A DNA stretch of 64,000 nucleotides, taken from assembly GCF_001280205.1 (NCBI RefSeq), contig NZ_CP012575.1:1-64000 (forward strand), given 5' to 3'. This DNA is from Clavibacter capsici (GTDB lineage Bacteria > Actinomycetota > Actinomycetes > Actinomycetales > Microbacteriaceae). Numbering within the stretch: position 1 is the first letter of the stretch; every line of letters starts with the position of its first letter. Below the pieces are notes generated by a model. The model saw only the letters and a list, made by a program, of their open reading frames with translations, ran no database searches and was not told the origin of the DNA. The position numbers were made by a program, and so were the translations under genes. Shown here one piece after another: positions 10,410-42,914 of this stretch.

Positions 10410-11462
10410 CTAGCCGAGCCCGTCGACGGGGCGCCAGACCTGTCCGTTCGGCTGGCCCCAGACCTTCTGGACCTTGACGACGTCGCCGACCTTCGGGGCC
10501 GCGATCATGACGTCGCCGCCCAGGCTGATGCCGACGTGCCAGGCGCCGTCGCCGCCCCAGAAGATGAGATCGCCGGGCTGCGCCTCGGACAGCGGATGCA
10601 TCTGGCCCCGCGCAACGCCGTTGCGCCACTGGGTGGTCGCCGAATGTCCGCCGTCGATGTCGATCCCGATGCCGGCGTAGGCCACCTTGGTCAGGCCGGA
10701 GCAATCCCAGCTGTCGGGGCCGGCACCGCCGAGCCGGTACGGCTTGCCGAGCTGCTGCTTCGCGAATGCAATGACCTGCGCGACCTGCTCGGCATGCGGA
10801 CCCGTCGGCGGGTGTTCCCCCGTAGCCAGCTCACCGCTCGCGAGGCCTCTTCCACGCGAGCAGGCGAGGCCCTGGTCCGTGCTCGAGACATGCGCGACGT
10901 CGGCTCCCGAGAGGCCGTCCATCAGCTCGGTTGCCTCCGGCAGGTGCGTTGCGTAGCGGTCGGGGAACGCCGACCGCTCGACCGCCTGCGCCGCCTCGCC
11001 CGGTGCCTTCGCCTCCCAGCCGGGGACGGCCGTGAGGCGGTCGTAGAAGAGCCCGATGGCGTACTGCGGATCCGTGATTTGATCGTGCGTCCCCCACCTC
11101 TGCGACGGCCGCATCTGGAAGAGGCCGGCGGAGTCGCGATCCCCGCCGTCGAGATCCCGGAGACCCGACTCGGTCATCGCCGCGATCAGGGCGATCTGCT
11201 GGGCGTGCCGGTCGAGACCGCGCTGCCTGCCGATCGAGAGGATCGACGCCGCGTTCTGGAGCTGCTCGCCCGAGTACGCGCCGATGCGGTCAGGGAGCTG
11301 GCCCGTCTGCACGGCGACGGCCGGCCCGATGGCGGCACAGGCGGAAGCCGAGGCTCTGTCGTTCCCTCCGTCGATGACGATGGTGAAGACGACTACGACG
11401 AGCGCCGCGAGGCCGATGACCGGCGCGGCGACCACCATGGCGATCGCACCGCCCTTGCTCAC
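10410..11462 (-). CDS. Cell-wall hydrolase with lysozyme-like and NlpC/P60 domains (VirB1-like)
   Basis: 350 residues from the GTG at 11462, whose GTGA overlaps the upstream stop; the longer frame upstream is a shadow. An N-terminal transmembrane helix (AMVVAAPVIGLAALVVVV) anchors it. The middle has the lysozyme-like pattern IALIAAMTESGL and SAGLFQMRPSQRWG, with the likely catalytic Glu in AMTESGL. The C-terminus is NlpC/P60: Cys in SWDCSGL and His in AWHVGISLGG. Such two-domain enzymes open peptidoglycan locally so the type IV channel can pass through the wall. Domain calls are strong; its place in the channel comes from operon context. Confidence 0.88.
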   Translation of the reverse strand: MSKGGAIAMVVAAPVIGLAALVVVVFTIVIDGGNDRASASACAAIGPAVAVQTGQLPDRIGAYSGEQLQNAASILSIGRQRGLDRHAQQIALIAAMTESGLRDLDGGDRDSAGLFQMRPSQRWGTHDQITDPQYAIGLFYDRLTAVPGWEAKAPGEAAQAVERSAFPDRYATHLPEATELMDGLSGADVAHVSSTDQGLACSRGRGLASGELATGEHPPTGPHAEQVAQVIAFAKQQLGKPYRLGGAGPDSWDCSGLTKVAYAGIGIDIDGGHSATTQWRNGVARGQMHPLSEAQPGDLIFWGGDGAWHVGISLGGDVMIAAPKVGDVVKVQKVWGQPNGQVWRPVDGLG

Positions 11463-30015: not shown

Positions 30016-30375
30016 CTAGCTGACCCCACGGCTGCCCGGCGACTCGCCATGGGTGGTGACGGCATGCGCCTCGGCCTGTCGCGCTGCGAAAGCGACCAGT
30101 CGGTCGCTGTTCTGCATCATCCACGCCACCGCCGAGTTCAACGAGTGCTCACGCCGTAGCCAGATCCGCGCCCCGTCGGCATTCCGGGCGTCGGCGTAGA
30201 TCTCGAACGTGAAGGGGTCACCCAGCTCGGTCCGGTGACGGAGCACGTACCCGAGGACCGGCTGGTCCTCGACCTGCACCCTCCAGTAGCCGGCCTCGAG
30301 ATGCGCGCACGGGTGCTCTCCGATGCTCCCGATGAGCCGGTCGATGCGGTCGACGGTGCTCTTCACCTTGCTCAT
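30016..30375 (-). CDS. Hypothetical protein, paralogue A
   Basis: 119 residues from MSKVKSTVDRIDRLIG at 30375, with AAGGAGA upstream. The core AGYWRVQVEDQPVLGYVLRHRTELGDPFTFEIYADARN is mostly beta-strand and is closely repeated in the minus-strand gene at 32985-33227 (AGYWRVQVEDHPVLGYVMRL). The C-terminus is helical (AVAWMMQNSDRLVAFAARQ). The 5' leader is a 48-base perfect copy of the paralogue's leader. Function unknown. Confidence 0.65.
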   Translation of the reverse strand: MSKVKSTVDRIDRLIGSIGEHPCAHLEAGYWRVQVEDQPVLGYVLRHRTELGDPFTFEIYADARNADGARIWLRREHSLNSAVAWMMQNSDRLVAFAARQAEAHAVTTHGESPGSRGVS

Positions 30376-30379
30376 CGCT

Positions 30380-30427
30380 GGTCTCCTTCGTCGATCGAGT
30401 CGATGTAGGAGCATCCGGCCACGCTCG
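30380..30427. repeat. 48-base direct repeat, copy 1 (leader of paralogue A)
   Basis: These 48 bases are identical to 33233-33280, start just upstream of each paralogue's start codon and include the AAGGAGA ribosome site on the minus strand. The identity exceeds that of the coding regions, indicating recent duplication or selection on the leader. The rest of the gap up to 30757 shows no supported gene. Confidence 0.8.
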
Positions 30428-30757
30428 TGCACGAGCGTAGGAGCCCGCACCGACAGACCGTGCCGCAAGCCCAGGAGTCTGCCCTCGACCGTCGAGGAAC
30501 CGGTCGCGGGGGGCGCTACTGGGTCCTTCATCTCGACGGCCCGATCGGGTCGACCACTCGAGGACCGATCGCCTCGGGGGGTCGAAGCACGGTGTGGTCG
30601 CCATCCGACCGGGTAACCCGGATCGCGACACGGCTGACCCTAGGTCAGGCGAGACGGCCGTCCTGACCCCTGGACTTCTGTCCGGCTCGTCGCTATTCTC
30701 CCAGCGACTTCTCGCGGAGACGAGGCGCACATCGTCTCCACATCCGAAGACGGAGAG

Positions 30758-32693: not shown

Positions 32694-32729
32694 CGCCCCC
32701 GGGCCTTCTCTCTCTTCCGGCCGGGGGCG
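32694..32729 (+). terminator. Terminator after the HNH gene
   Basis: CGCCCCCGG (32694-32702) pairs with CCGGGGGCG (32721-32729), followed by TTTGG. It begins 11 bases after the HNH stop. The remaining gap to 32984 holds no supported gene, only a decayed-looking fragment ending in HVILYVRPLD. Confidence 0.7.
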
Positions 32730-32984
32730 TTTGGTGTCCGCGCATACTGGGTGGTGGATGGCCTAGGAGCTCGCGCACCGGCCCCGCACGGAGACCAGCG
32801 CGCAGCTCGTCACCGTCGAGCTGGGCGGCCGCCGAGCAGCTCGGCCCGCGGATCCCCGGCGGGCACGTCATCCTCTACGTCCGGCCCCTCGACTAGACGC
32901 CGGCGTCGAGGTGCTCGTCGACGCCCGCCGGTTCCGGCGGCGCATGCCGCGCAGCCAACGCCACGAGCCGGTCTGAGCGCTGCA

Positions 32985-33227
32985 TCATCTACGCCACGCC
33001 ACGGCCGCGTTCGCGAACGCCTCCTGGTGGACCCAGATCCGTTGTCCGCGCTCGTTGCGGGCACTCGCGTAGACCTCGTACGCGAACGGAACCCCGAGCT
33101 CCGCACGAAGCCGCATCACGTACCCGAGCACGGGATGGTCCTCGACCTGGACGCGCCAGTAGCCGGCCCATGGGTGTGTCTCGATGCCGCGCACCAGGCG
33201 CGTGGCGCCGCCCTTCACCTTGTTCAC
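32985..33227 (-). CDS. Hypothetical protein, paralogue B (C-terminus lost by frameshift)
   Basis: 80 residues from VNKVKGGATRLVRGIE (GTG 33227). The core AGYWRVQVEDHPVLGYVMRL and GVPFAYEVYASARNERGQRI is closely related to paralogue A. The C-terminus ends early at VAWRR. Beyond a tandem GTGGC-GTGGC the other frame continues MMQRSDRLVALAARHA, equivalent to MMQNSDRLVAFAARQA in A, so a small duplication shifted the frame. Copy B is therefore probably the degenerate one. Confidence 0.6.
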   Translation of the reverse strand: MNKVKGGATRLVRGIETHPWAGYWRVQVEDHPVLGYVMRLRAELGVPFAYEVYASARNERGQRIWVHQEAFANAAVAWRR

Positions 33228-33232
33228 CTGGT

Positions 33233-33280
33233 GGTCTCCTTCGTCGATCGAGTCGATGTAGGAGCATCCGGCCACGCTCG
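33233..33280. repeat. 48-base direct repeat, copy 2 (leader of paralogue B)
   Basis: Identical to 30380-30427 over 48 bases, ending with the same GGCCACGCTCG. It holds the ribosome site of paralogue B. The remaining gap to about 33600 shows no supported gene. Confidence 0.8.
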
Positions 33281-33602
33281 CCGGGCGAGCATACGGGCCG
33301 CCAATGACAAGCACGCGCACTCCTGGCTCCTTGGCGCTTTGTCTAGGGAACGATGCGGCGGGACTCGAGACGCTTACGGATCTTGCTGGCGCGCGGGCCT
33401 GTCGCGGTAAGGACGCCGCGGTGGCCGTCAGGGGGAGACGGAGGCGCGAGCTAACCACGACGAGGACGTGGACACGGGTCTCGCGTAAAGCCGGGCTTGA
33501 CCGGCTCGCCCCTCCCGCGCCGTCACTATCACCTCGATGGCCCGACCGCCAGTGTTCCCCGACATTTCTTTGATCGCGCGCTCACCTGATACCATTCCCC
33601 CC

Positions 33603-34076
33603 ATGGGGGAAATTCAAGTAAGAACCATGCCGTCGATCACCGGGGAACGCCGCGGTCTCGGCCTGATAGCCGGTCAAGCACTGGTGGATGGCATCGCGAC
33701 GGGGGGCGTCGTCCTCTTCGCGTTGATCGTGACGGATATTGGAACCCCCACCACCGCGCTCCTCGGACTCGGAATCCTCGCGCTGTCGTCACTTGCACGA
33801 ATCGCCCTGATTGTGGGCGTGAAGCGGACCGGCGTGCGTGCGGTCGGTCGGGACGAGATGCCGGGACGGCAGTGGATTTACCTGCTTTATGCGCTCGAAC
33901 TGGTGGCATTCGGCGCGGGGGTTGTCCTTGCGCATTCCCCGATGGGCGTGGTGTCCGCCGTTGTGGCCGCAGTCGCCGCGACGGCGATCGCCTCTGCCGT
34001 CCTCGTTCGCGTGGCGACTCGGGCTGGGAGCGGATCCGCGTTCATCGACACGGTGAGGATGCGCGCGTACCGCTAG
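33603..34076 (+). CDS. Four-helix membrane protein upstream of the lanthipeptide operon
   Basis: 157 residues from MGEIQVRTMPSITGERRG; another ATG lies nine codons later. Four transmembrane helices: GQALVDGIATGGVVLFALIV, LLGLGILALSSLARIALIVG, WIYLLYALELVAFGAGVVLA, VVSAVVAAVAATAIASAVLV. The C-terminus is basic (FIDTVRMRAYR). Being small, hydrophobic and 310 bases before the precursor gene, it could be an immunity or accessory protein, but I see no family match. Confidence 0.5.
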   Translation: MGEIQVRTMPSITGERRGLGLIAGQALVDGIATGGVVLFALIVTDIGTPTTALLGLGILALSSLARIALIVGVKRTGVRAVGRDEMPGRQWIYLLYALELVAFGAGVVLAHSPMGVVSAVVAAVAATAIASAVLVRVATRAGSGSAFIDTVRMRAYR

Positions 34077-34386
34077 TCCGGTAGGGCCTCCGTACCGACG
34101 GATTGCCGCGGTGGCGACCGCGCCGCGTGGACCGCTTGAGGACTCGAGATGCACGAGCGCTCGTATCGATAATATTGCGCGAATCATGCTCGCCTTTTCT
34201 CGGTAGCAGCTTCGGCGCGCTTTCGCGACCCCACCCCCGGAATGTACGATGCCGCCCCAAAAAAGGGGGTAATCACCATTAAGGCATTGCCCATCGGCTT
34301 GATTCCCTGCGACAGTCGAGACCGAGTCCGGAATTAACATTCGCACCGGGCTTGCTCCGCCGACAGAACCAACGAGAGGCAAGAAA
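34077..34386 (+). promoter_or_regulatory. Leader/promoter region of the lanthipeptide operon
   Basis: This gap is more AT-rich than its surroundings (TCGATAATATTGCG, AATTAACATTCG). It contains CCCC-AAAAAA-GGGG (near 34255-34270) and a possible -10 box TAACAT (34335-34340), but no convincing -35 partner. The precursor ATG is preceded by GAGAGG. No gene is seen. Confidence 0.35.
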
Positions 34387-34563
34387 ATGTCTGACATCTC
34401 ATCTGAATTCGATCTCGACCCCAAGGTCGGTGCGTCCAGCGGGAATGCATCCCCGCAGACGACGCCCGTTTTCGGGCTCACATTCAAGCTGACCGTCAAG
34501 GTGTGCAGGACGATCATCACCACCACCGCCTGCGGCTCCACGCAGACGTCGGGTCGCTGCTGA
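34387..34563 (+). CDS. lanA: Class I lanthipeptide precursor (LanA)
   Basis: A 58-residue peptide, ATG after GAGAGGCAAGAAA. The leader MSDISSEFDLDPKVGASSG carries FDLD, equivalent to the FNLD box recognised by LanB/LanC, and ends NASPQ, matching nisin's GASPR. Cleavage after Gln24 would leave a 34-residue core. The core has Cys40, Cys49 and Cys58, each with Thr four residues before it (T36-VKV-C, T45-TTA-C, T54-SGR-C), plus many other Thr/Ser for dehydration. LanC, LanB and an exporter follow directly. Identification is strong from leader, core and neighbours. The ring pattern is prediction. I know of no described lantibiotic with this core. Confidence 0.9.
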   Translation: MSDISSEFDLDPKVGASSGNASPQTTPVFGLTFKLTVKVCRTIITTTACGSTQTSGRC

Positions 34564-34575
34564 CACGAAGCCTGT

Positions 34576-34606
34576 GGGTGTTCCGGCGCACATGGCCGGA
34601 ACACCC
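34576..34606 (+). terminator. Attenuator-like hairpin between lanA and lanC
   Basis: GGGTGTTCCGGC (34576-34587) and GCCGGAACACCC (34595-34606) make a perfect 12-bp stem with a 7-base loop, followed by CTTTCC. Such partial terminators after lantibiotic precursor genes keep precursor mRNA above that of the enzymes. It also rules out the GTG at 34574 as a sensible lanC start. Confidence 0.75.
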
Positions 34607-34624
34607 CTTTCCGCTTTGAAGCCC

Positions 34625-35923
34625 ATGATCACGTACACGACTCACGCGATGGAAATCCTCGCGACACGCCTCGCGGACGAGGCAGCCATCCGCGCAGCCG
34701 TCTCGGACGCGGACGCTCTCGACGTGGGCATGTCATGGGACGGCCGCAATCTCGGCGATGGTCATGCCGGCGTCTCCTTGGCGCTGTTCGCGGCCACGCT
34801 GTCGACCGGCGTCGACTTCGATCGCGAGGCCATGGCGCATCTCCGCTCGGCGGTGCAGCTGAGCACTACCGCCCCCTTCACATCGCTGGGGCTCTTCGAC
34901 GGAGCTGCCGGCCTGGCGTCTGCCATGGCGGAACGGTCCATCGTCGACGAACGGCTGCTCCCATCCGCAAGGCGATTCCATCAAGTCGTCGTCACGCAGC
35001 TAGGAGCCCGCACGCCGCCTCCTGAAGGTGGCTTCGCTGACGGGAGCCCGTATGACGTCATCTCCGGGGCAGCCGGTCAGCTCCTCTTCCTCTCCGCCGC
35101 CCCCCGAGCCGTGAGCGGTCCCGACGACGGGGCTGTTGCGTCCGGGCTCATGGACGTCCTCGCCGACCTGTTGCAGGCGAGCACCTCCGTGACGGAGGCC
35201 TTCACGGTGGACAGGCGCTACTTCATGCCGGGGAGCACGTACGAAGTGCTCTCGACCGGCGACTTCGTCGATCTCGGCACCGCACACGGCGTAGCGGGCA
35301 TCGCGCTGGCCCTGGCGTCGGCCGCGAAGCGCTTCGGGGCACGACCTGTCGTCACCGACCAGCTCCGCCGGGTGAGGGACTGGCTGCTCGACATGGCCGT
35401 CCCGGAGCCGAGCGGATGCCTGCAATGGCCACGTGGACTGGAGGTGCACGGCTCCGTGACGATGCGCTCGACGGGGTCGGCGTGCGCCTGGTGCTTCGGG
35501 AGCAGCGGACCAGCCGTCGCCCTCCTCCGCATCGCCGAACTCCTCGGTGACGAAAGCTCGGCGTCCGGCATGCGGGCCTCCATCGAGTCGAACGTAGAGG
35601 CGTTCATCAGCACGCCGACGACCGACTTATCCTTGTGCCACGGCGCAGCAGGCATGCTGGTCTTGCATTCTGTGACGTCCCACGGCTCGACGGTGCCGTC
35701 GACACGCTGGGCCGCCAACGACGAGCTGCTCGTGAGCCGGATCATGCAGAGCATCGATACCGATGCCCCCTTCGGCATCGTCAGCGCGGGCCTCGACGGA
35801 CAGCCCCTCCACGACCCCACCTTCCTGATGGGCGCGGCCGGCACCCTGGCCACGCTGGCAGGACGAACCCATGACGCCCAACCGATCTGGCACCGCTACT
35901 TCACCGGAGCACCCAATGAATGA
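34625..35923 (+). CDS. lanC: Class I lanthionine synthetase cyclase (LanC)
   Basis: 432 residues from MITYTTHAMEIL at 34625. It adds cysteine thiols to dehydrated Ser/Thr to close thioether rings. The double-helix toroid motifs are visible: LGDGHAGVSLAL, GLFDGAAGLASAM, ISGAAGQLLFL, GTAHGVAGIALAL, and the zinc ligands Cys290 in AWCFGSSG and Cys338-His339 in LCHGAAG. All three ligands are present, so the enzyme should be active. No clear ribosome site precedes the ATG; translation may depend on the hairpin region. It overlaps lanB by 8 bases. Confidence 0.92.
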   Translation: MITYTTHAMEILATRLADEAAIRAAVSDADALDVGMSWDGRNLGDGHAGVSLALFAATLSTGVDFDREAMAHLRSAVQLSTTAPFTSLGLFDGAAGLASAMAERSIVDERLLPSARRFHQVVVTQLGARTPPPEGGFADGSPYDVISGAAGQLLFLSAAPRAVSGPDDGAVASGLMDVLADLLQASTSVTEAFTVDRRYFMPGSTYEVLSTGDFVDLGTAHGVAGIALALASAAKRFGARPVVTDQLRRVRDWLLDMAVPEPSGCLQWPRGLEVHGSVTMRSTGSACAWCFGSSGPAVALLRIAELLGDESSASGMRASIESNVEAFISTPTTDLSLCHGAAGMLVLHSVTSHGSTVPSTRWAANDELLVSRIMQSIDTDAPFGIVSAGLDGQPLHDPTFLMGAAGTLATLAGRTHDAQPIWHRYFTGAPNE

Positions 35924-38900
35924 ACCCACCGCGCGCTACCGGTACCAGCCCGCCGGCTTCTCCATGACCCGCACCACCCTGAGCCCCCTCAAGCCCCTCA
36001 TCGACGCCTACGCATCCGTCATCGACGCGGAGGCGTTGCGATCACTCATCGATCCTCGCCTCGAGGTGGCCATCGACTACGCCTCGCCCGGGCTGTCGTC
36101 GTGGTACCGGAGCGCGACCCCGCAGCAACTGAACATCGCCGAGTCCAACAAGGCACGCAGCCTGTTGCGCTACATCATCCGATCGCGCTCGAGGCCCACC
36201 CCGTTCGGCCTGTTCGCCGCGACCTCGGCCGGCCCCCTCGCAGACCCTGAGCACCCCGTCGACGCCGACACCGTGGACCCCGACGCGGTCATCGTGCACT
36301 CTCGACCGGACATGGCCCTGATCGACAGCCTCCATAGGAAGGAGATTCTGACCCTTCCGCCAGATGCTCCGGTGAGGAGCAATGCGCTCCGACGAGTGAT
36401 CCACGGGCGCGTGACGCTGCCCGCCGCCTTCGCGATGGGAGCGACCGATGCGGGCGCCGACTTGTCGATCAAAGCCGCGCCGGCGGCGCTCCTCGCGCTG
36501 GAGAGAGCGGCAGACGGCATCACCCTGGACGGCTTGCGCACCGGACTGCGTGATCACTACGAAGGACGCGCGTCGACCGCCGTCCTTAATGCCTTACTGA
36601 CCAACCTTTTGGAGCTCGGCTTCTTGATCCCCGAGGACACGCCGAGCCTCGTGTACGGCGGGTACCGACCGGATCGCTTCCTCCGAGGCCTCCCGGGTCG
36701 CACCTCCGACATGTTGCGGCAGCTCGTCTGGACAGCCCGCGCCAATTCGGTAGACGAGATCGGTCAGCACCTGGAGCGAGCGACGCTCCTGTTCCCCTCC
36801 GAGTCGAACCGAGCGCCCATCGACCTGCATCTGACCACGCCAACGCACCACCTGGCACTCTCCCGTGTCACGGCCGAACGCATCGCCGATGCGGCCACGT
36901 TCATGCAGGCCGTCGCCCCGGCATCTGGCGAAGGCGACGTGGCGAACGAGTACCCCCTGCGGGCCTACCACGCGCAGTTCCTCGATCGCTACGGGTTTGG
37001 CGGCGCGGTCCGCATTGCCGACCTGGTCGACGGGCACCTGGGCTTGGGCTCGGTGGGCGAGCACATCGCCTCTCCCCTTGAGGTCCCCTCTCAGCCTGGC
37101 CGCCTGACGGCATACGAATCCGTCTTGTCGGACGTCCTGATGCGCGGGCTACAGGAGGGCGCCTTCCTCGTGGAGATCACCGAGGCACTCGAGGCGCGCA
37201 TGCGCCTCGCCGTCGGCTCGCAGGGAACCGCACGGACCCCGGTGCATGCGATCGACGTCTTCGCACAGGTGGGACGACACCACGAGGGAGACGGGGAGGA
37301 CCTGATCGTCCTGAACAGCGCGTCGGTCGCAGAAGGAGGGAGCGCTTTCGGCAGATTCGCGCATGTCCTCACGCACGAGGTCAGGGAGTCCCTCCGCGCC
37401 CTCGCGATGACACCGTCTCCTCAGACGGCCGTCCCGACGCAAATGGTCGACTTCCCCCAGGCGGCGCGCGGCGCGAACGTGTCCGTGACGCCAAGCTCCA
37501 CCGACACGAGGATCGTCGTCAACGGCGGACAGACGGACGCTGAGGGCCTCGCCCTCGACATCAGCGACGTGTATGTGACCTCCGACTACGACAGGCTCAT
37601 TCTCTGGTCGCGGAAGCTCGACAGGGAGATCACCATCCGGCGATCGCATGTCCTCAACCCGGAAATGTCTAACCCCGTCGCGCGGTTACTCACTGTGCTC
37701 TCCGACCACTCCCGACGCCCCCTCGGCGGATTCTCCTGGGGGACGTTCGAGGGAAGCCTGCGGCTCCCTCGCGTCGTCCGGCGGGGCGTGGTGCTGCGTG
37801 CAGGCGAGTGGACGCTACCCAAGGCCGACATCGACACCACCGACGCGACGGTCGCACGGGAGCTCGTCGATGCCTGGCGTCAGACCTGGCAGGTGCCGGA
37901 CCTCGTCTACGAAGTTGAAGAGGACAACCGTCTCCTGCTCGACCTGGACAACGACTTCGCCGTGATGCACATCCTGGGCGAGCTGAGGACCCGCAAGCAC
38001 CTGCGATTCCAGGAGGTCCTGCCGGGTCCGGACCAGTTGCGGAGCACCGACGCGGCCGGCGAGGGCCTCGTAACCGAGGTCGTGGTGCCCATCGCGCTCG
38101 TCGCGGTCCCGAGCGGCAGCGATCGCGGAGCCCACGCCAGCTTGGATCACCACGCGTCGCCATCCTGGGCGGCGGTGCATGAGCCGCACTTCATCGACGA
38201 TCCCCTGCAGGTCGACGACGAGTGGCTCTCTCTGCAGGTGTACGAGCCGGCCGCGCAGCACAGGCGGACGCTGCTCGAGCTCGACGAGATGCTCGGCCAC
38301 CTGCTTCGCGGATCCCCGCGATCGCGGTGGTACTTCGTGCAGTACCAGGACCCGCGACCTCACCTGCGGATCAGGCTGCATGTCGGCGAAGACCGGGCCG
38401 CGCTCACGCAGGCTCTCCGGGCGTGGTGGGAACCCCGGCGCATCGAGGGACTCTTACGAGACGTGCTTGAGGTGCCGTACCGCCCGGAAAAGGGGCGGTA
38501 CGGCGGTGCGGCGATGTTCACGTTCTTTGAGACGTTTTTCGCGAAGGAATCGTCGGCGTACCTGGCCGCGCTCCGAACGACCTCGGAGCTCGACGACATG
38601 GCGGTCGCGGTCGCAATGCTCGATGCCTACGCGCGCACGGTGTTCGACACCTTGGAGGAGCGGCTCGCGTTCGTCAAGGGCGGCGTCGTCGGTGCGGAAC
38701 GGAATCCCAAGTCCATAAGGTACCTACGCGAGAACCGCGCCGTGCTGCATGCGCTCGTTTCCAGCTCGTCGGGAGCTGATCACGATCCGCCCGCCATCGG
38801 TGAGGGACTCCGTGACCTGGCCGCATCGAGCGAGCGTGCTTTCGGTGCGTTGCTTCGCTCCGTCAGGGATCTGGGCTGGGATGACCTTGCCGATGCGCAT

Positions 38901-39059
38901 CGCGAAGGCATCCTCCGCAGCGTCTGGCACATGACCTGCAATCGCGTCCTCGATCACAGGTCGCTGGCGGACGAGGAGGTCTTCGACGTGTGGCGTGGAG
39001 CCCTGCAGAGCCAGCGCGGCCGCTTGACGTATTTGGAGGAAGCGAGCTCCCATGCTTAG
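35916..39059 (+). CDS. lanB: Class I lanthipeptide dehydratase (LanB)
   Basis: 1047 residues from MNEPTARYRYQPAGFSM at 35916, which overlaps the end of lanC. Full-length LanB enzymes glutamylate Ser/Thr with glutamyl-tRNA and then eliminate glutamate. The N-terminal glutamylation domain spans about 1-700 (SNKARSLLRYIIRSRSRPTPFGLF is the typical early motif; AYHAQFLDRYGFG follows). The C-terminal elimination (SpaB_C) domain spans about 768-1040 (WLSLQVYEPAAQ, WYFVQYQDPRPHLRIRLHV, RYGGAAMFTFFETFF). Nothing is missing. It overlaps lanT by 8 bases, so lanC-B-T are translated as a unit. Confidence 0.93.
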   Translation: MNEPTARYRYQPAGFSMTRTTLSPLKPLIDAYASVIDAEALRSLIDPRLEVAIDYASPGLSSWYRSATPQQLNIAESNKARSLLRYIIRSRSRPTPFGLFAATSAGPLADPEHPVDADTVDPDAVIVHSRPDMALIDSLHRKEILTLPPDAPVRSNALRRVIHGRVTLPAAFAMGATDAGADLSIKAAPAALLALERAADGITLDGLRTGLRDHYEGRASTAVLNALLTNLLELGFLIPEDTPSLVYGGYRPDRFLRGLPGRTSDMLRQLVWTARANSVDEIGQHLERATLLFPSESNRAPIDLHLTTPTHHLALSRVTAERIADAATFMQAVAPASGEGDVANEYPLRAYHAQFLDRYGFGGAVRIADLVDGHLGLGSVGEHIASPLEVPSQPGRLTAYESVLSDVLMRGLQEGAFLVEITEALEARMRLAVGSQGTARTPVHAIDVFAQVGRHHEGDGEDLIVLNSASVAEGGSAFGRFAHVLTHEVRESLRALAMTPSPQTAVPTQMVDFPQAARGANVSVTPSSTDTRIVVNGGQTDAEGLALDISDVYVTSDYDRLILWSRKLDREITIRRSHVLNPEMSNPVARLLTVLSDHSRRPLGGFSWGTFEGSLRLPRVVRRGVVLRAGEWTLPKADIDTTDATVARELVDAWRQTWQVPDLVYEVEEDNRLLLDLDNDFAVMHILGELRTRKHLRFQEVLPGPDQLRSTDAAGEGLVTEVVVPIALVAVPSGSDRGAHASLDHHASPSWAAVHEPHFIDDPLQVDDEWLSLQVYEPAAQHRRTLLELDEMLGHLLRGSPRSRWYFVQYQDPRPHLRIRLHVGEDRAALTQALRAWWEPRRIEGLLRDVLEVPYRPEKGRYGGAAMFTFFETFFAKESSAYLAALRTTSELDDMAVAVAMLDAYARTVFDTLEERLAFVKGGVVGAERNPKSIRYLRENRAVLHALVSSSSGADHDPPAIGEGLRDLAASSERAFGALLRSVRDLGWDDLADAHREGILRSVWHMTCNRVLDHRSLADEEVFDVWRGALQSQRGRLTYLEEASSHA

Positions 39060-40830
39060 TGCCATCTGGCGGGTGTGGCGTACCTCTCCACGACGTTATG
39101 CCCTGGCGGCGCTCATGACGTGGATCGGCGCTGTGGTGCCGGGCCTGCAGATTGCCCTCACAGCAGAGGTCGTGGATGCGGTCGCGGACGGCGCCGCGGC
39201 GGGTGCGGGCATCGAGTACGTCAACGTCGCCCTGCCCCTCTTCGGGCTGTTCGCGGCCCAGGTGGCGCAACGCCTACTCTCGTCGGCCGCGCAGTACCTG
39301 ATGTCGCACGCGGGACTGTTGGCGGACCAGGCATTCTCGAAGCAATCACTCGCGACAGGGCTCGGGCTCTCGCAATCGCACTACGAGGACCCGGCCGAGT
39401 ACAACCGCATCCGACGCGCGCTCTCAGAGATACAGGGCAACCGTGTCTCCTCCTTGCCGGAGACGACCATCGACACGCTCGCTGCGTTCGTCTCGATCGT
39501 GTCGATCTCGGTGTCCTTGTTCTCGTGGCACCCACTCGCGTCGATCCTGGTGCTCCTATCCCCGTTCCCCGGCGTGGGCGTCGCGGCCCTCTTCGGGCGC
39601 CACCGTTGGTCGTTGGACGTCAACCAGACAGAATCACGACGCATGATCAACTACCTCCAAGCGCTGTCAATGAGCGACCAGTCGCACAAGGAGCTGGCCC
39701 ATTACCGACTAGGTGGGCACATACGAGCCCGCTTCTCGAACATGCTCCAGACCCTGCTCCGGCAAGACGTCCAACAGCTCCGTCAGAGCCAGGCGGGAGT
39801 CACCGGCGCGGATCTCTTCGGCATGGGCTTCACCATCCTCGCCCTCGTGTTGGTCGTCAACAGCGTCATAGGCGGTGGGGGGAGCGTGACTGTCGGGAAC
39901 CTGGCCGGCTTCATCCAGGGCATGAACTCGTTGTACGGAGTGACGATCGGGGCCCTGGGAGGGATCGCCGGGATATACCAGGCATCGCTGTACGCGCGAA
40001 ACCTCTTCGACTTCGTGGACACACCGATCGAGAAGCCCTTGGATGGCGGCAAACCCTTTCCAGAGGTCCTGGCCGACGGCATCACCTTCCGCGATGTCCA
40101 CTTCTCCTATCCCGGCACCAAGACGCCCGTCTTTACATCCCTCGACCTGACGCTCCCTGCCAACAAGACAATCGCCATCGTCGGCCCGAACGGAGGCGGA
40201 AAGACCACCCTGGTCAAGCTCCTGCTCGGCATCTACGCGATAGACCGCGGCCAGATCGAATTCGACGGGCTTCCCTCGTCCGCGTACGATCGCGATTCCT
40301 TGCGTAGCGGAATCGGCGTGCTGTTCCAGGACTACGTCCGGTTCGAGCTGAGCGCCTACGACAACATCGCGTTCGGCAACATCGATGACATCGGCAATCA
40401 AGGTGCAGTGTCCTGGAGCGCCGAGAAGGTCCGGATGTCGGATCGCCTCAACCGGTTGAAGAACGGCCTGCACACACCGCTCGGCAGACGCTTCGAGGGA
40501 GCCGAACAGCTGTCCATCGGGGAATGGCAGCGCGTGGCGGCTGCGCGTGCCCTGGTCTCCGAGCCAGGTATCGTCGTGCTCGACGAGCCGACAGCGTCGA
40601 TGGACGCCGAGAGCGAGCACGCTCTCCTCCACGCCCTGAGCAACGGTTCAGGGAAGCGCACGATCATCATCGTCGCGCACAGCTTGTCCGCCATCCTGGC
40701 TTCTGACATCGTGCTGTTCGTCGGCGGAGCCGGGCAAGAGATCCATCTCGGCCCGCATGCTGAGCTGCTCGCCGACGCCCACTACGCCGAGTTCTTCGAT
40801 CGACTGCTCATGAACGCGCGCGGGGAGTAG
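39052..40830 (+). CDS. lanT: Lanthipeptide ABC exporter (LanT)
   Basis: 592 residues: an N-terminal membrane domain of about 320 residues, then an ATPase domain with Walker A GPNGGGKTT (378-386), signature LSIGEWQRVAAARAL (from 487) and Walker B IVVLDEPTAS (about 507-516). There is no N-terminal C39 peptidase domain, as expected for class I exporters of NisT type, which export the modified peptide with its leader. Leader removal therefore needs another protease, and none is encoded nearby. It is the last gene of the operon. Confidence 0.92.
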   Translation: MLSAIWRVWRTSPRRYALAALMTWIGAVVPGLQIALTAEVVDAVADGAAAGAGIEYVNVALPLFGLFAAQVAQRLLSSAAQYLMSHAGLLADQAFSKQSLATGLGLSQSHYEDPAEYNRIRRALSEIQGNRVSSLPETTIDTLAAFVSIVSISVSLFSWHPLASILVLLSPFPGVGVAALFGRHRWSLDVNQTESRRMINYLQALSMSDQSHKELAHYRLGGHIRARFSNMLQTLLRQDVQQLRQSQAGVTGADLFGMGFTILALVLVVNSVIGGGGSVTVGNLAGFIQGMNSLYGVTIGALGGIAGIYQASLYARNLFDFVDTPIEKPLDGGKPFPEVLADGITFRDVHFSYPGTKTPVFTSLDLTLPANKTIAIVGPNGGGKTTLVKLLLGIYAIDRGQIEFDGLPSSAYDRDSLRSGIGVLFQDYVRFELSAYDNIAFGNIDDIGNQGAVSWSAEKVRMSDRLNRLKNGLHTPLGRRFEGAEQLSIGEWQRVAAARALVSEPGIVVLDEPTASMDAESEHALLHALSNGSGKRTIIIVAHSLSAILASDIVLFVGGAGQEIHLGPHAELLADAHYAEFFDRLLMNARGE

Positions 40831-41170
40831 CCGTCACGTGGAGTGGGTGATCGGTCATCATGTGGTGCGAATGCATGACCCGCGCGTGCCCTTCCGTGGT
40901 TGTCCATCGCCATGGTGGCCGTCGTCGCCGCAGGATTCATCAGCTCCTCCGGCGTCAGCATCGGCCTTGCCGCGCTGCTCTTCGTGATCGCCACGGGCAC
41001 CTATGAGGCGCGCAACCGACGGTCAGGCGGCGGCGCCCGCTGGCACCAACGTCACGATGGCGGATATTCCTGGGGGTGCCCGCCGTCGGTCGTCAACACG
41101 CGCCACGCCGACGGGTAGGCGATTCGCGAGCAGACCCCACAGCTGCGGGGCGCCGGTCCAGTGCCCGAGC
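40831..41170. other. No supported gene after lanT
   Basis: A short hydrophobic frame around 40912 (VAVVAAGFISSSGVSIGLAA) exists but has no ribosome site and runs into low-complexity sequence. No hairpin terminator stands out. Confidence 0.35.
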
Positions 41171-42389
41171 ATGACGACCATCGCGATCAGCACGCAGCCC
41201 TCCCAGCCTTTGTTCTCGCGGCGGTTCCTGTCGAGCGTCACGCTTGCGAGCGGCGCCGGCTAGGCCGTGGACTTCGCCCTGCCGCTGTTCGCCGGTGCCG
41301 TGCTCGGCCTCACGGCCGCGCAGACCGGCGCGCTCCTGGCGGGGGGTCTTGCGACGTCGTTCCTGCTCCGTCCGCTCGGCGGCGTCGCCGCGGACCGGTA
41401 AGACTGGGCCATGATCGCCACGGCCTCCGCTCTCATCCTGGGCGCCGGCTATGCGCTCGTCGCCGCCGCCGGCACCTTCCCCGTCGTCCTCGCGGGCGTG
41501 CTCGTCCCGGGCCGGCGGGGCGTTCCTGAGGGTCGCGCTGCGTGCGACCGCCGGCGCCCGCCACCAGGCGGATCCGCGCGCGTTCGCCCGGCTGATGTCG
41601 GCCGAGGAGCTGGGGTCGTGGGTCGTCCTCGCGCCGGCGATCGCGCTCCTCGCAGCGGCTGGCTATGCGCCGACCTTCGCCGCGGCCGCGGCGTACGCGT
41701 TCGTCGCCGGCGTGCTCCTCGCCTCGAGCCGACGCCGGGCGTCGCCGCGGGGGAGTGGCGACGTCGATGCCCCTCGAGTGGCGCCGCTCGTCGACGCCGG
41801 CACCGCGGTCGTGCGCGAGCTCGCCCGCCGGCTGCGCCCGCTCCTGGCTGTGGTGACGGTCATCGGGACCGCGGAGGCCGCGATCGGTCTGCTCCTGGTG
41901 CTGCACCTGCAGCGTGAGCTCGGCCTCGAACCCCTCGCCATCGCGTGGGTGTCACTCCCGGGAGGTATCGCCCTCGCGGTCGCCCCGCCCCACCAGCACC
42001 GGCTCACGGTCCGGTTCGGCCGCACGCCCGTCCTCGTCGGCGCGGCCATCGCCGGCGCCGCGTTCGCCGGCGGGCTCGCACTCGCCCGGGATCCCGTGAC
42101 GATCGCCGTCGTCTGGATCCTGTCTGCGCTCGCGCAGCCCGCGATCCTCCCGATCGAGCAGGCCGCCCTCACCGAGGCCGCCGGCCCCGCCCGCATCGGT
42201 CGCGCGCTGGGCCTCTACGAGGCCACCACGCTCCTCGCCGCCGCCCTCGGCAGCCTCGCCGCCGGGATCCTCTACGACGCCGTCCAGTGGAAGATCGCGT
42301 GCGCGACGTCGGCGGCCGTGATCCTCGCCGGCGGGCTCCTGCTGCCGCGGGTCGTCCGCCGGCTCGCGCCGGCGTCCGCTGCCCGCTGA
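41171..42389 (+). pseudogene. MFS transporter, broken by two stops and a frameshift
   Basis: From ATG 41171 the frame reads QPLFSRRFLSSVTLASGAG, stop TAG (41261), AVDFALPLFAGAVLGLTAAQ, GGLATSFLLRPLGGVAADR, stop TAA (41400), then MIATASALILGAGYALVAAA. Near CCC 41506-41508 the frame moves +1 to GAFLRVALRATAGARHQADP and stays open to 42389, with six or more helices (AFVAGVLLASS, LLAVVTVIGTAEAAIGLLLV, VWILSALAQPAILPIEQ). It is a sugar- or drug-type MFS protein. Two nonsense codons as well as an indel make real decay more likely here than in the singly shifted genes. Confidence 0.65.
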
Positions 42390-42401
42390 GCCACCAACGG
42401 C

Positions 42402-42434
42402 GAGAGGGCCGACCCGTGCCGGGCCGGCCCTCTC
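42402..42434. terminator. Bidirectional terminator between the MFS remnant and lsr2
   Basis: GAGAGGGCCG (42402-42411) pairs perfectly with CGGCCCTCTC (42425-42434) over a 13-base loop, between the convergent MFS remnant and lsr2. Confidence 0.7.
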
Positions 42435-42450
42435 ATGCGTCCTGCGCGCG

Positions 42451-42795
42451 CTAGCTGTTCGCGCGGTACTCCTCGAGCAGATCCGCGGAGATGCGCCCGC
42501 GCTCGGAGACCTTGTGGCCGTGCTCGCGCAGCCACTCGCGCGCCGCGCTGAGGTCCTGCTTCGGGCTCGAGCCGGCCGAGCGGCGGGGTGCCTTCCCAGA
42601 GGTGGCGCGGCCGACGCGGCGGCCCTTCTCGATGTAGTCATCGAGCGCGGTACGCAGCTTGGCGGCGTTGTCGTCGCTGAGGTCGATCTCGTAGTTCACG
42701 CCATCGAGCGCGAATGGAACGGTCTCGCCCTGGCCCTCGTCGATCTGAGTGCCGTCGATGTCGTCAACGAGCGTGGTAAGTACTTTGCGGGCCAT
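42451..42795 (-). CDS. lsr2: Lsr2 nucleoid-associated protein / xenogeneic silencer
   Basis: 114 residues. The N-terminal dimerisation domain (ARKVLTTLVDDIDGT, ETVPFALDGVNYEIDLSD, NAAKLRTALDDYIEKGRRVG) and the C-terminal DNA-binding domain (SAAREWLREHGHKVSERGRIS) with the RGR minor-groove motif are both intact. Lsr2 coats AT-rich, often acquired DNA and silences it, the actinobacterial counterpart of H-NS. A copy on a mobile element may lower the cost of the AT-richer cargo in this window; that is inference. Confidence 0.95.
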   Translation of the reverse strand: MARKVLTTLVDDIDGTQIDEGQGETVPFALDGVNYEIDLSDDNAAKLRTALDDYIEKGRRVGRATSGKAPRRSAGSSPKQDLSAAREWLREHGHKVSERGRISADLLEEYRANS

Positions 42796-42914
42796 CTAAT
42801 TTCCTCCCCAAACGGATTCAGCGCGGTAACGATGCGCTGAATCCCACGATACATGCCCAGGTCCGTACAGTGCGCATTTGCTGGTCGTGGTGCGCCTGTC
42901 GCATTCGTTTTGAG

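What the first reader, a model, noticed from the sequence alone, without database searches (positions are those of the whole stretch)
34387..34563. Unusual class I lanthipeptide precursor with three Thr-x3-Cys units at exact 9-residue intervals
The 58-residue product has a nisin-like leader (FDLD box, NASPQ before the predicted cut) but an unfamiliar core. Cys40, Cys49 and Cys58 are 9 residues apart, and each has Thr at position -4, so three similar methyllanthionine rings could form in a row. The first unit, T-VKV-C, recalls the S-VKQ-C ring of Pep5 (comparison from memory). The rest does not match a lantibiotic I know.
Basis: partly seen in the sequence, partly recalled or inferred. Interest (0 to 1): 0.87.

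Follow-up and report, generated by a model that had tools for sequence, protein, structure and literature searches.

The report
Plasmid class I lanthipeptide, epilancin-like core
A plant-pathogenic bacterium's plasmid carries the core genes for making a small ring-containing, probably antibacterial peptide whose front half resembles staphylococcal epilancins and whose back half matches no characterised peptide that was compared here.

Summary
Window 34387-34563 encodes a 58-residue class I lanthipeptide precursor with Cys40/49/58 nine residues apart and Thr at -4 of each. It precedes lanC, lanB and an ABC transporter gene on a Clavibacter capsici-type plasmid (99.9% over 24 kb to pCM2_1101). 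RefSeq already names it "FDLD family class I lanthipeptide". My paper searches showed no description of it (several lists were capped).

The new point is the core's N-terminal half. An 11-residue linear stretch precedes a possible Thr12-VKV-Cys16 ring flanked by Lys10 and Arg17, the layout described for non-lipid-II lantibiotics such as epilancins and Pep5. The core aligns with epilancin K7 better than its shuffles do (2 of 2000 reach the score), but it fails the epilancin model (18.7 bits against 75). Partners for rings 2 and 3 are ambiguous, so three T-x3-C rings is one prediction among several.

The same peptide is encoded in C. sepedonicus, whose lanB is frame-broken in 2 of 2 records. Verdict: real, a new member of a known kind, moderate interest.

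The parts
34387..34563 (+). lanA, 58-residue class I lanthipeptide precursor
   Evidence: NF038155 27.8 bits; RefSeq WP_012300331.1; identical protein on 5 plasmid records
34387..34458 (+). predicted 24-residue leader with FDLD box, ending ASPQ
   Evidence: the cut after Q24 is inferred from nisin-type leaders (recalled) and from two other FDLD precursors with PQ before a nisin-type core (L057, L065)
34459..34560 (+). predicted 34-residue core, net charge +4, 12 Ser/Thr and 3 Cys
34374..34379 (+). GAGAGG ribosome-binding-like site of lanA
   Evidence: sequence; the same GAGAGG precedes lanA in C. sepedonicus
34576..34606 (+). 12-bp hairpin between lanA and lanC, possible attenuator or RNA stabiliser (inferred)
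   Evidence: -31.7 kcal/mol for 65 nt, z -4.14, 1 of 200 shuffles as good; nearly the same sequence in C. sepedonicus. No terminator-like site in 34000-34700
34625..35923 (+). lanC, 432-residue cyclase with AHG, AWCFG and LCHG motifs (H221, C290, C338, H339)
   Evidence: PF05147 88.2 bits; alignment to PDB 8byk; motif positions
35916..39059 (+). lanB, 1047-residue dehydratase with the N-terminal (glutamylation) and C-terminal (elimination) domains
   Evidence: PF04738 305.8 and PF14028 118.5 bits; PDB 5ehk E 4.7e-34; nearly invariant R85, R89, R93 and invariant R818, R820, E858, H1005, R1010 in an alignment of ten LanB
39052..40830 (+). ABC transporter, 592 aa, probable exporter of the modified precursor; no peptidase domain among its Pfam hits
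   Evidence: PF00005 100 bits; 96.1% identical to the C. sepedonicus copy
33627..34076 (+). 149-aa membrane protein with 4 hydrophobic stretches; candidate immunity protein (inferred)
   Evidence: no family hit for the frame 33537-34076; hydropathy; an annotated gene at the same place in C. sepedonicus, inside the shared block
40900..41118 (+). 72-aa ORF with one hydrophobic stretch, unknown
41451..42389 (+). MFS transporter fragment; its N-terminal part is out of frame here, while one uninterrupted gene is annotated in C. sepedonicus
   Evidence: PF07690 69.8 bits; annotation
32729..42818 (.). 10.1-kb block shared with C. sepedonicus pCSL1 at 89% DNA identity
   Evidence: blastn

Best explanation
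This is a plasmid-borne class I lantibiotic operon. LanB dehydrates Ser and Thr of the core; LanC adds Cys16, Cys25 and Cys34 (core numbering) to dehydrated residues to give three thioether rings; the ABC transporter exports the product; a protease encoded elsewhere removes the leader after Gln24. The first ring, Thr12-VKV-Cys16, follows an 11-residue linear N-terminus and sits between Lys10 and Arg17, as in epilancins. The core has no nisin-type lipid II motif and a charge of +4, so it most likely acts on Gram-positive competitors by binding anionic membranes, as proposed for the epilancin/Pep5/paenibacillin group. Shown here: gene, gene order, domain content, unchanged protein in two species, sequence motif. 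Inferred: modification, ring partners, protease, target.
For: Enzymes in a row: LanC PF05147 88.2 bits, LanB PF04738 305.8 and PF14028 118.5 bits, ABC PF00005 100 bits; lanC/lanB and lanB/ABC overlap by 8 bases (coordinates). LanB and LanC motifs are kept. Precursor model NF038155 passed. The lanA protein is unchanged between C. capsici and C. sepedonicus while LanC is 90.1% and the ABC protein 96.1% identical. Core: the best alignment to epilancin A37 is gap-free over 31 columns; K7 z 4.20 (2 of 2000 shuffles), A37 z 2.56 (42 of 2000), against K7 z from -1.2 to 2.7 for Pep5 and 13 other LanA cores. A cation/five-residue-ring/cation expression matches this core, Pep5, A37 and K7 and 0 of 13 other LanA cores. 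[quoted passage not shown] The lipid II motif SxxxCTP(G/S)C (PMC7268733, passage) is absent from the core.
Against: The epilancin model NF047830 gives only 18.7 bits against a cut-off of 75, and in a scan of 379 class-level genomes four stretches inside long frames score 21.5-25 bits, above the window's 17.6, so the profile match alone is within chance. The motif expression was written after seeing the core, and the ring Lys is at ring position 3, not 2 as in the published motif (Pep5 also has it at 3). The best K7 alignment needs a two-residue gap, which sets Cys25 opposite K7 Cys23, while A37 is gap-free with Cys25 opposite Cys25, so the register after the first ring is uncertain. L071 reaches z 2.70 for K7, and L075 and L071 reach z 2.48 and 2.32 for A37, so the A37 score does not stand out. 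The epilancin double ring is absent. No protease or LanO gene and no recognised immunity gene is annotated nearby, and the MFS gene is broken in the window. Nothing shows expression.
Confidence: 0.6

Rival explanations
1. One reading: three equal, separate T-x3-C methyllanthionine rings in a row (Thr36-Cys40, Thr45-Cys49, Thr54-Cys58), a repeated-ring architecture.
For: Thr is at -4 of all three Cys and the spacing is exactly nine; both together in 0.07% of core shuffles. Two T-x3-C units also occur in each of the FDLD precursors near the two best-ranked LanB relatives (L070, L071).
Against: Cys49 also has Thr46 at -3, which lies opposite a ring Thr of epilancin in both best alignments, and Cys58 has Ser55 at -3. 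No diverged copy was found to test which residue is conserved.
Confidence: 0.35
2. A decaying cluster: the peptide gene persists by recent ancestry, but the pathway is no longer productive in these hosts.
For: lanB is frame-broken near codon 845 in 2 of 2 C. sepedonicus plasmid records; lanC is split in 1 of 3 C. capsici records (strain 1207); the MFS gene is broken in the window. Sporadic distribution: 2 of 18 genus genomes, own included.
Against: In the window lanA, lanC, lanB and the ABC gene are all open; LanB and LanC are 100% identical over full length in C. capsici 1101 and in record NZ_CP048048.1. lanA shows no amino-acid change although the shared block is only 89% identical.
Confidence: 0.25
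3. A lanthipeptide with a signalling or host-directed role rather than an antibiotic.
For: A Clavibacter paper notes that RiPP products may have roles other than antibiosis (PMC11521342, passages). No LanFEG or LanI is named among the 27 features annotated around the gene, though only some of these proteins were scanned here.
Against: Cationic core with the layout of non-lipid-II lantibiotics; another Clavibacter lanthipeptide, michiganin A, is antibacterial (PMC10676316, passages).
Confidence: 0.1

Closest known systems
Epilancins (K7, A37, 15X; NCBIfam NF047830)
   Same: FDL-type leader ending in PQ; 11-residue linear N-terminus; Ser/Thr12 and Cys16 of a five-residue ring; Lys10, Lys14, Cys16, a basic residue 17, Thr22 and Cys25 in register with A37
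   Different: Score 18.7 against cut-off 75; no Cys23, so no interlocked rings; an extra Cys34 at the C-terminus; no protease or oxidoreductase annotated nearby; whether the enzymes share descent was not tested
Pep5 (PF08130)
   Same: 34-residue core starting with Thr; possible five-residue ring with V-K inside; basic residues on both sides
   Different: No PF08130 hit; alignment z 1.8 only; Cys at 13, 27, 33 rather than 16, 25, 34; charge +8 against +4
FDLD family class I lanthipeptides (NF038155)
   Same: 27.8 bits, above cut-off 20; RefSeq uses this name
   Different: The model covers 34 positions, residues 7-40 here, so it says little about the core; another member in the same bacterial family (G121, L065) has a nisin-type core
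Streptomyces sp. 549 and HM190 precursors (L070, L071)
   Same: FDLD precursors upstream of the two best-ranked LanB relatives (29% best segment); two T-x3-C units each
   Different: Six Cys and a different core; core alignment to this one is near chance (z 1.2 and 0.4)
Michiganin A
   Same: Lanthipeptide made by a Clavibacter (PMC10676316, passages)
   Different: 21 residues, actagardine-like (same passage); made by a class II enzyme (recalled), not by LanB and LanC

Membership tests
Class I lanthipeptide | Precursor beside separate LanB and LanC genes | tested here: met
Class I lanthipeptide | LanB with both glutamylation and elimination domains | tested here: met
   PF04738 and PF14028; conserved columns R85-R93 and R818-R1010 (their roles are recalled)
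Class I lanthipeptide | LanC zinc ligands (Cys, Cys-His; role recalled) | tested here: met
   C290, C338, H339, aligned with the cyclase 8byk
Class I lanthipeptide | Thioether rings in the product | not testable with these tools
   needs chemistry of the product
FDLD family class I lanthipeptide (NF038155) | Score above curated cut-off 20 | tested here: met
   27.8 bits
Epilancin family (NF047830) | Score above curated cut-off 75 | tested here: not met
   18.7 bits; higher sub-cut-off hits occur in long frames of other genomes
Epilancin family (NF047830) | Linear N-terminus of 11 then a five-residue ring with flanking cations | tested here: inconclusive
   the residues are in place as described, but ring formation is not shown and the ring Lys is at position 3 rather than 2
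Epilancin family (NF047830) | Two intertwined four-residue rings at the C-terminus | tested here: not met
   one Cys (25) where epilancins have Cys23 and Cys25
Epilancin family (NF047830) | Dedicated leader protease in the cluster | tested here: not met
   none named among the 27 features annotated around it; 4 subtilase hits in the genome at E <= 1e-5, all on contig C1, none on C3
Pep5 type (PF08130) | Pfam match | tested here: not met
   no hit at E <= 1
Nisin/gallidermin (TIGR03731) | Family match and SxxxCTP(G/S)C lipid II motif | tested here: not met
   no hit at E <= 1; motif absent

The most novel reading that the evidence does not exclude
An actinobacterial lantibiotic that joins the epilancin/Pep5 cationic five-residue ring (a non-lipid-II mode) to two further separate methyllanthionine rings at nine-residue intervals: a new ring layout and, as far as I recall and without a search for others, the first member of this functional group outside Firmicutes, carried on plasmids of two Clavibacter species.
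Probability: 0.3. Interest if true: 0.55.

Novelty: new member of a known kind. Interest (0 to 1): 0.4.

Why it matters
The known non-lipid-II lantibiotics fall into a few groups (epilancin, Pep5, paenibacillin), and how epilancin 15X acts is still being worked out. A precursor from another phylum that keeps the linear N-terminus, the five-residue ring and the flanking cations but changes the part downstream would help to separate what that mode of action needs. It would also add a third lanthipeptide type to Clavibacter besides michiganin and the class III michivionin, on a plasmid block shared by a pepper and a potato species.

Tried and rejected
Relatives of lanA: a viral-contig scan confirmed none. 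The weak plasmid hit in Streptomyces violaceusniger (39%, E 0.5) was rejected: the stretch partly overlaps an annotated gene on the other strand and no lan gene is named among the 33 features around it. The hits in Ruegeria and Rhizobium (E 6 and 2) were not followed. Nine genus genomes with only weak hits (best E from 0.09 to 4.2), and the second weak hit in G011, were taken as chance; two of these loci, L009 and L014, were seen as Arg-rich frames. The NF038155 hits below cut-off in 18 of the 21 family genomes with a match got no more than the pattern pass. In some searches at most 2 candidates per genome were scored.

Controls: the 13 comparison cores were chosen by me from small ORFs found by pattern (FxLD-like box, two or more Cys) in loci; core starts were set by eye. 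Left out: further precursor-like ORFs of L062 (two), L064, L074 (one), L090, and those of L058, L073 and L079 found only by the looser pass, besides frames that looked non-coding. Loci without such an ORF gave no core.

Rejected ideas: a terminator after lanA (no terminator-like site); a nisin-type lipid II binder (no motif); paenibacillin as the closest relative was not tested (its sequence is only recalled; RefSeq names epilancin A37 'lantibiotic paenibacillin'). A fold prediction was not run.

Papers: passages only of PMC3930743, PMC10676316, PMC8159966, PMC10988021, PMC9190974, PMC3091789, PMC7268733, PMC3721211, PMC11251773; passages and section 16 of PMC11521342; passages and the introduction of PMC10652874; the rest of the search results as listings. 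PMC3091789, PMC7268733 and PMC11251773 do not mention Clavibacter in the main text. The C. sepedonicus genome paper (Bentley 2008) was not seen, so a mention there cannot be excluded. No supplementary file was read.

Full report
WHAT IS THERE. The ORF at 34387-34563 encodes MSDISSEFDLDPKVGASSGNASPQ|TTPVFGLTFKLTVKVCRTIITTTACGSTQTSGRC (the bar is the predicted cut). A GAGAGG site precedes the ATG by 7 bases. Downstream lie lanC (34625-35923), lanB (35916-39059) and an ABC transporter gene (39052-40830); lanC/lanB and lanB/ABC overlap by 8 bases, and the main Pfam scores are far above cut-off. LanB has both domains and shares the columns that are invariant among ten aligned LanB proteins, its own included. 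LanC keeps the Cys and Cys-His motifs aligned to a solved cyclase. Between lanA and lanC is a 12-bp hairpin (z -4.14), nearly the same in C. sepedonicus, with no terminator-like T run; a role in setting the ratio of precursor to enzyme is inferred.

WHERE IT IS. The window lies on contig C3 of a 3.24-Mb genome in 3 contigs and is 99.9% identical over 24,194 bases to plasmid pCM2_1101 of Clavibacter capsici. The same protein is encoded on 5 plasmid records: 3 of C. capsici, 2 of C. sepedonicus. In one-genome-per-species samples it is in 2 of 18 Clavibacter genomes, own included, and its LanC in 2 of 398 family genomes at E <= 1e-10, both Clavibacter. LanB has no close relative in the samples: 3 of 396 order genomes and 9 of 396 phylum genomes match at E <= 1e-20, the own genome counted in each, and the others are at 27-31% identity. 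On plasmids, of 43 records with a LanB match the 35 non-Clavibacter ones listed are at or below 31.2%; LanC matches 7 Streptomyces records at 29-31%.

SHARED BLOCK AND DECAY. A 10.1-kb stretch (32729-42818) is shared with C. sepedonicus pCSL1 at 89% DNA identity. In it lanA has 3 synonymous and no non-synonymous differences, LanC is 90.1% and the ABC protein 96.1% identical. lanB in C. sepedonicus changes frame near codon 845: two frames match the window's LanB at about 92% over 1-845 and 844-1047. The same annotated protein, WP_158309461.1, appears in a second strain, and the tblastn match is in two pieces in both records. The residues after the break include E858, H1005 and R1010, invariant in the LanB alignment, so the cluster is probably not productive there (inferred). 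In C. capsici 1207 lanC is annotated as two pieces. In the window the MFS gene is interrupted, while C. sepedonicus has one annotated gene of 1,221 bases. I describe these breaks only.

IS THE PATTERN MEANINGFUL? Equal spacing plus Thr at -4 occurs in 0.07% of shuffles of this Thr-rich core, equal spacing alone in 4.6%. This is an after-the-fact test. Because every copy found encodes the same protein, conservation cannot say whether Thr45 and Thr54 are the ring residues.

A BETTER COMPARISON. Epilancin A37, epilancin K7 and Pep5 precursors were fetched from public plasmids. The best alignment of the core to A37 is gap-free (31 columns) and puts Val4, Thr8, Lys10, Lys14, Cys16, Thr22, Cys25 and Thr28 on the same residues; the best one to K7 has a two-residue gap after the first ring and puts Cys25 opposite K7 Cys23. 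Scores against shuffles: K7 z 4.20 (2 of 2000 shuffles reach it), A37 z 2.56 (42 of 2000). For Pep5 and 13 other LanA cores the z values run from -1.2 to 2.7 for K7 and from -1.6 to 2.5 for A37, so the K7 score stands out and the A37 score hardly does. Epilancin A37 is described as an 11-membered linear N-terminus, a five-membered ring, a three-membered hinge and two intertwined four-membered rings (PMC10988021, passages). [quoted passage not shown] The window's core has an 11-residue linear start, T12-VKV-C16, and Lys10/Arg17. A regular expression for this layout, written after seeing the core, matches it, Pep5, A37 and K7 and 0 of 13 other LanA cores; it appears anywhere in 3945 of 500000 shuffles, and a position-fixed version in 44 of 500000.

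RESULTS AGAINST. The epilancin profile gives 18.7 bits, far under its cut-off of 75; Pep5 itself scores 29.6, and a nisin-like precursor from the same bacterial family scores 14.4. Two Streptomyces precursors give no hit to it at E <= 1 and nine further LanA precursors none at E <= 10. In a scan of 379 class genomes four stretches inside long frames score 21.5-25 bits, above the window's 17.6. The published motif has its ring cation at ring position 2, this core at 3. The second half of the core does not follow epilancins: one Cys fewer in the double-ring region, an added Cys34.

MECHANISM. Most likely: LanB and LanC make three rings, the ABC protein exports, a chromosomal protease trims (4 subtilase hits, all on contig C1; none is linked to the cluster), and the cationic peptide acts on membranes of Gram-positive competitors. 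The dehydrated first residue would become a 2-oxobutyryl group after trimming, as recalled for Pep5. The membrane protein upstream (33627-34076) is my candidate for immunity, by position and presence in both species only.

NOVELTY. RefSeq annotation already names the peptide and its enzymes. Paper searches with Clavibacter or sepedonicus and lanthipeptide, lantibiotic, pCSL1, bacteriocin, antiSMASH or LanC listed no paper that I could see to describe it; the lists were capped at 20, 20 and 25 of 25, 45 and 1,107 papers. The Clavibacter paper I read in part reports michiganin and a class III product (PMC11521342, passages and section 16). So: known kind, existing annotation, uncharacterised core with a partial epilancin layout.

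Noticed in passing
window 30016-30531 (-) and 32985-33458 (-): Two minus-strand hypothetical genes are related (50% over 102 positions, E 4e-29); DNA related to 30080-30455 also lies at 10534-10901 of the C. sepedonicus locus L003.
   Followed up: partly
window 41171-42389: MFS transporter gene interrupted in the window, annotated as one gene of 1,221 bases in C. sepedonicus. Described only.
   Followed up: partly
L003:13444-16670: C. sepedonicus lanB changes frame in its elimination domain in both plasmid records examined, although lanA is intact.
   Followed up: yes
L017 / L065 (G121, same bacterial family): An FDLD precursor with a nisin-type ITSVSLCTPGC start of the core, above the gallidermin/nisin cut-off (48.6 against 29.3 bits), with LanB and LanC relatives beside it.
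   Followed up: partly
L070:4346 and L071:4388: Two Streptomyces FDLD precursors with six Cys each, T-x3-C units and T-x2-C units, upstream of the LanB relatives that rank best.
   Followed up: no
L112: RefSeq names the epilancin A37 precursor 'lantibiotic paenibacillin', although it scores 119.5 bits to the epilancin model.
   Followed up: no
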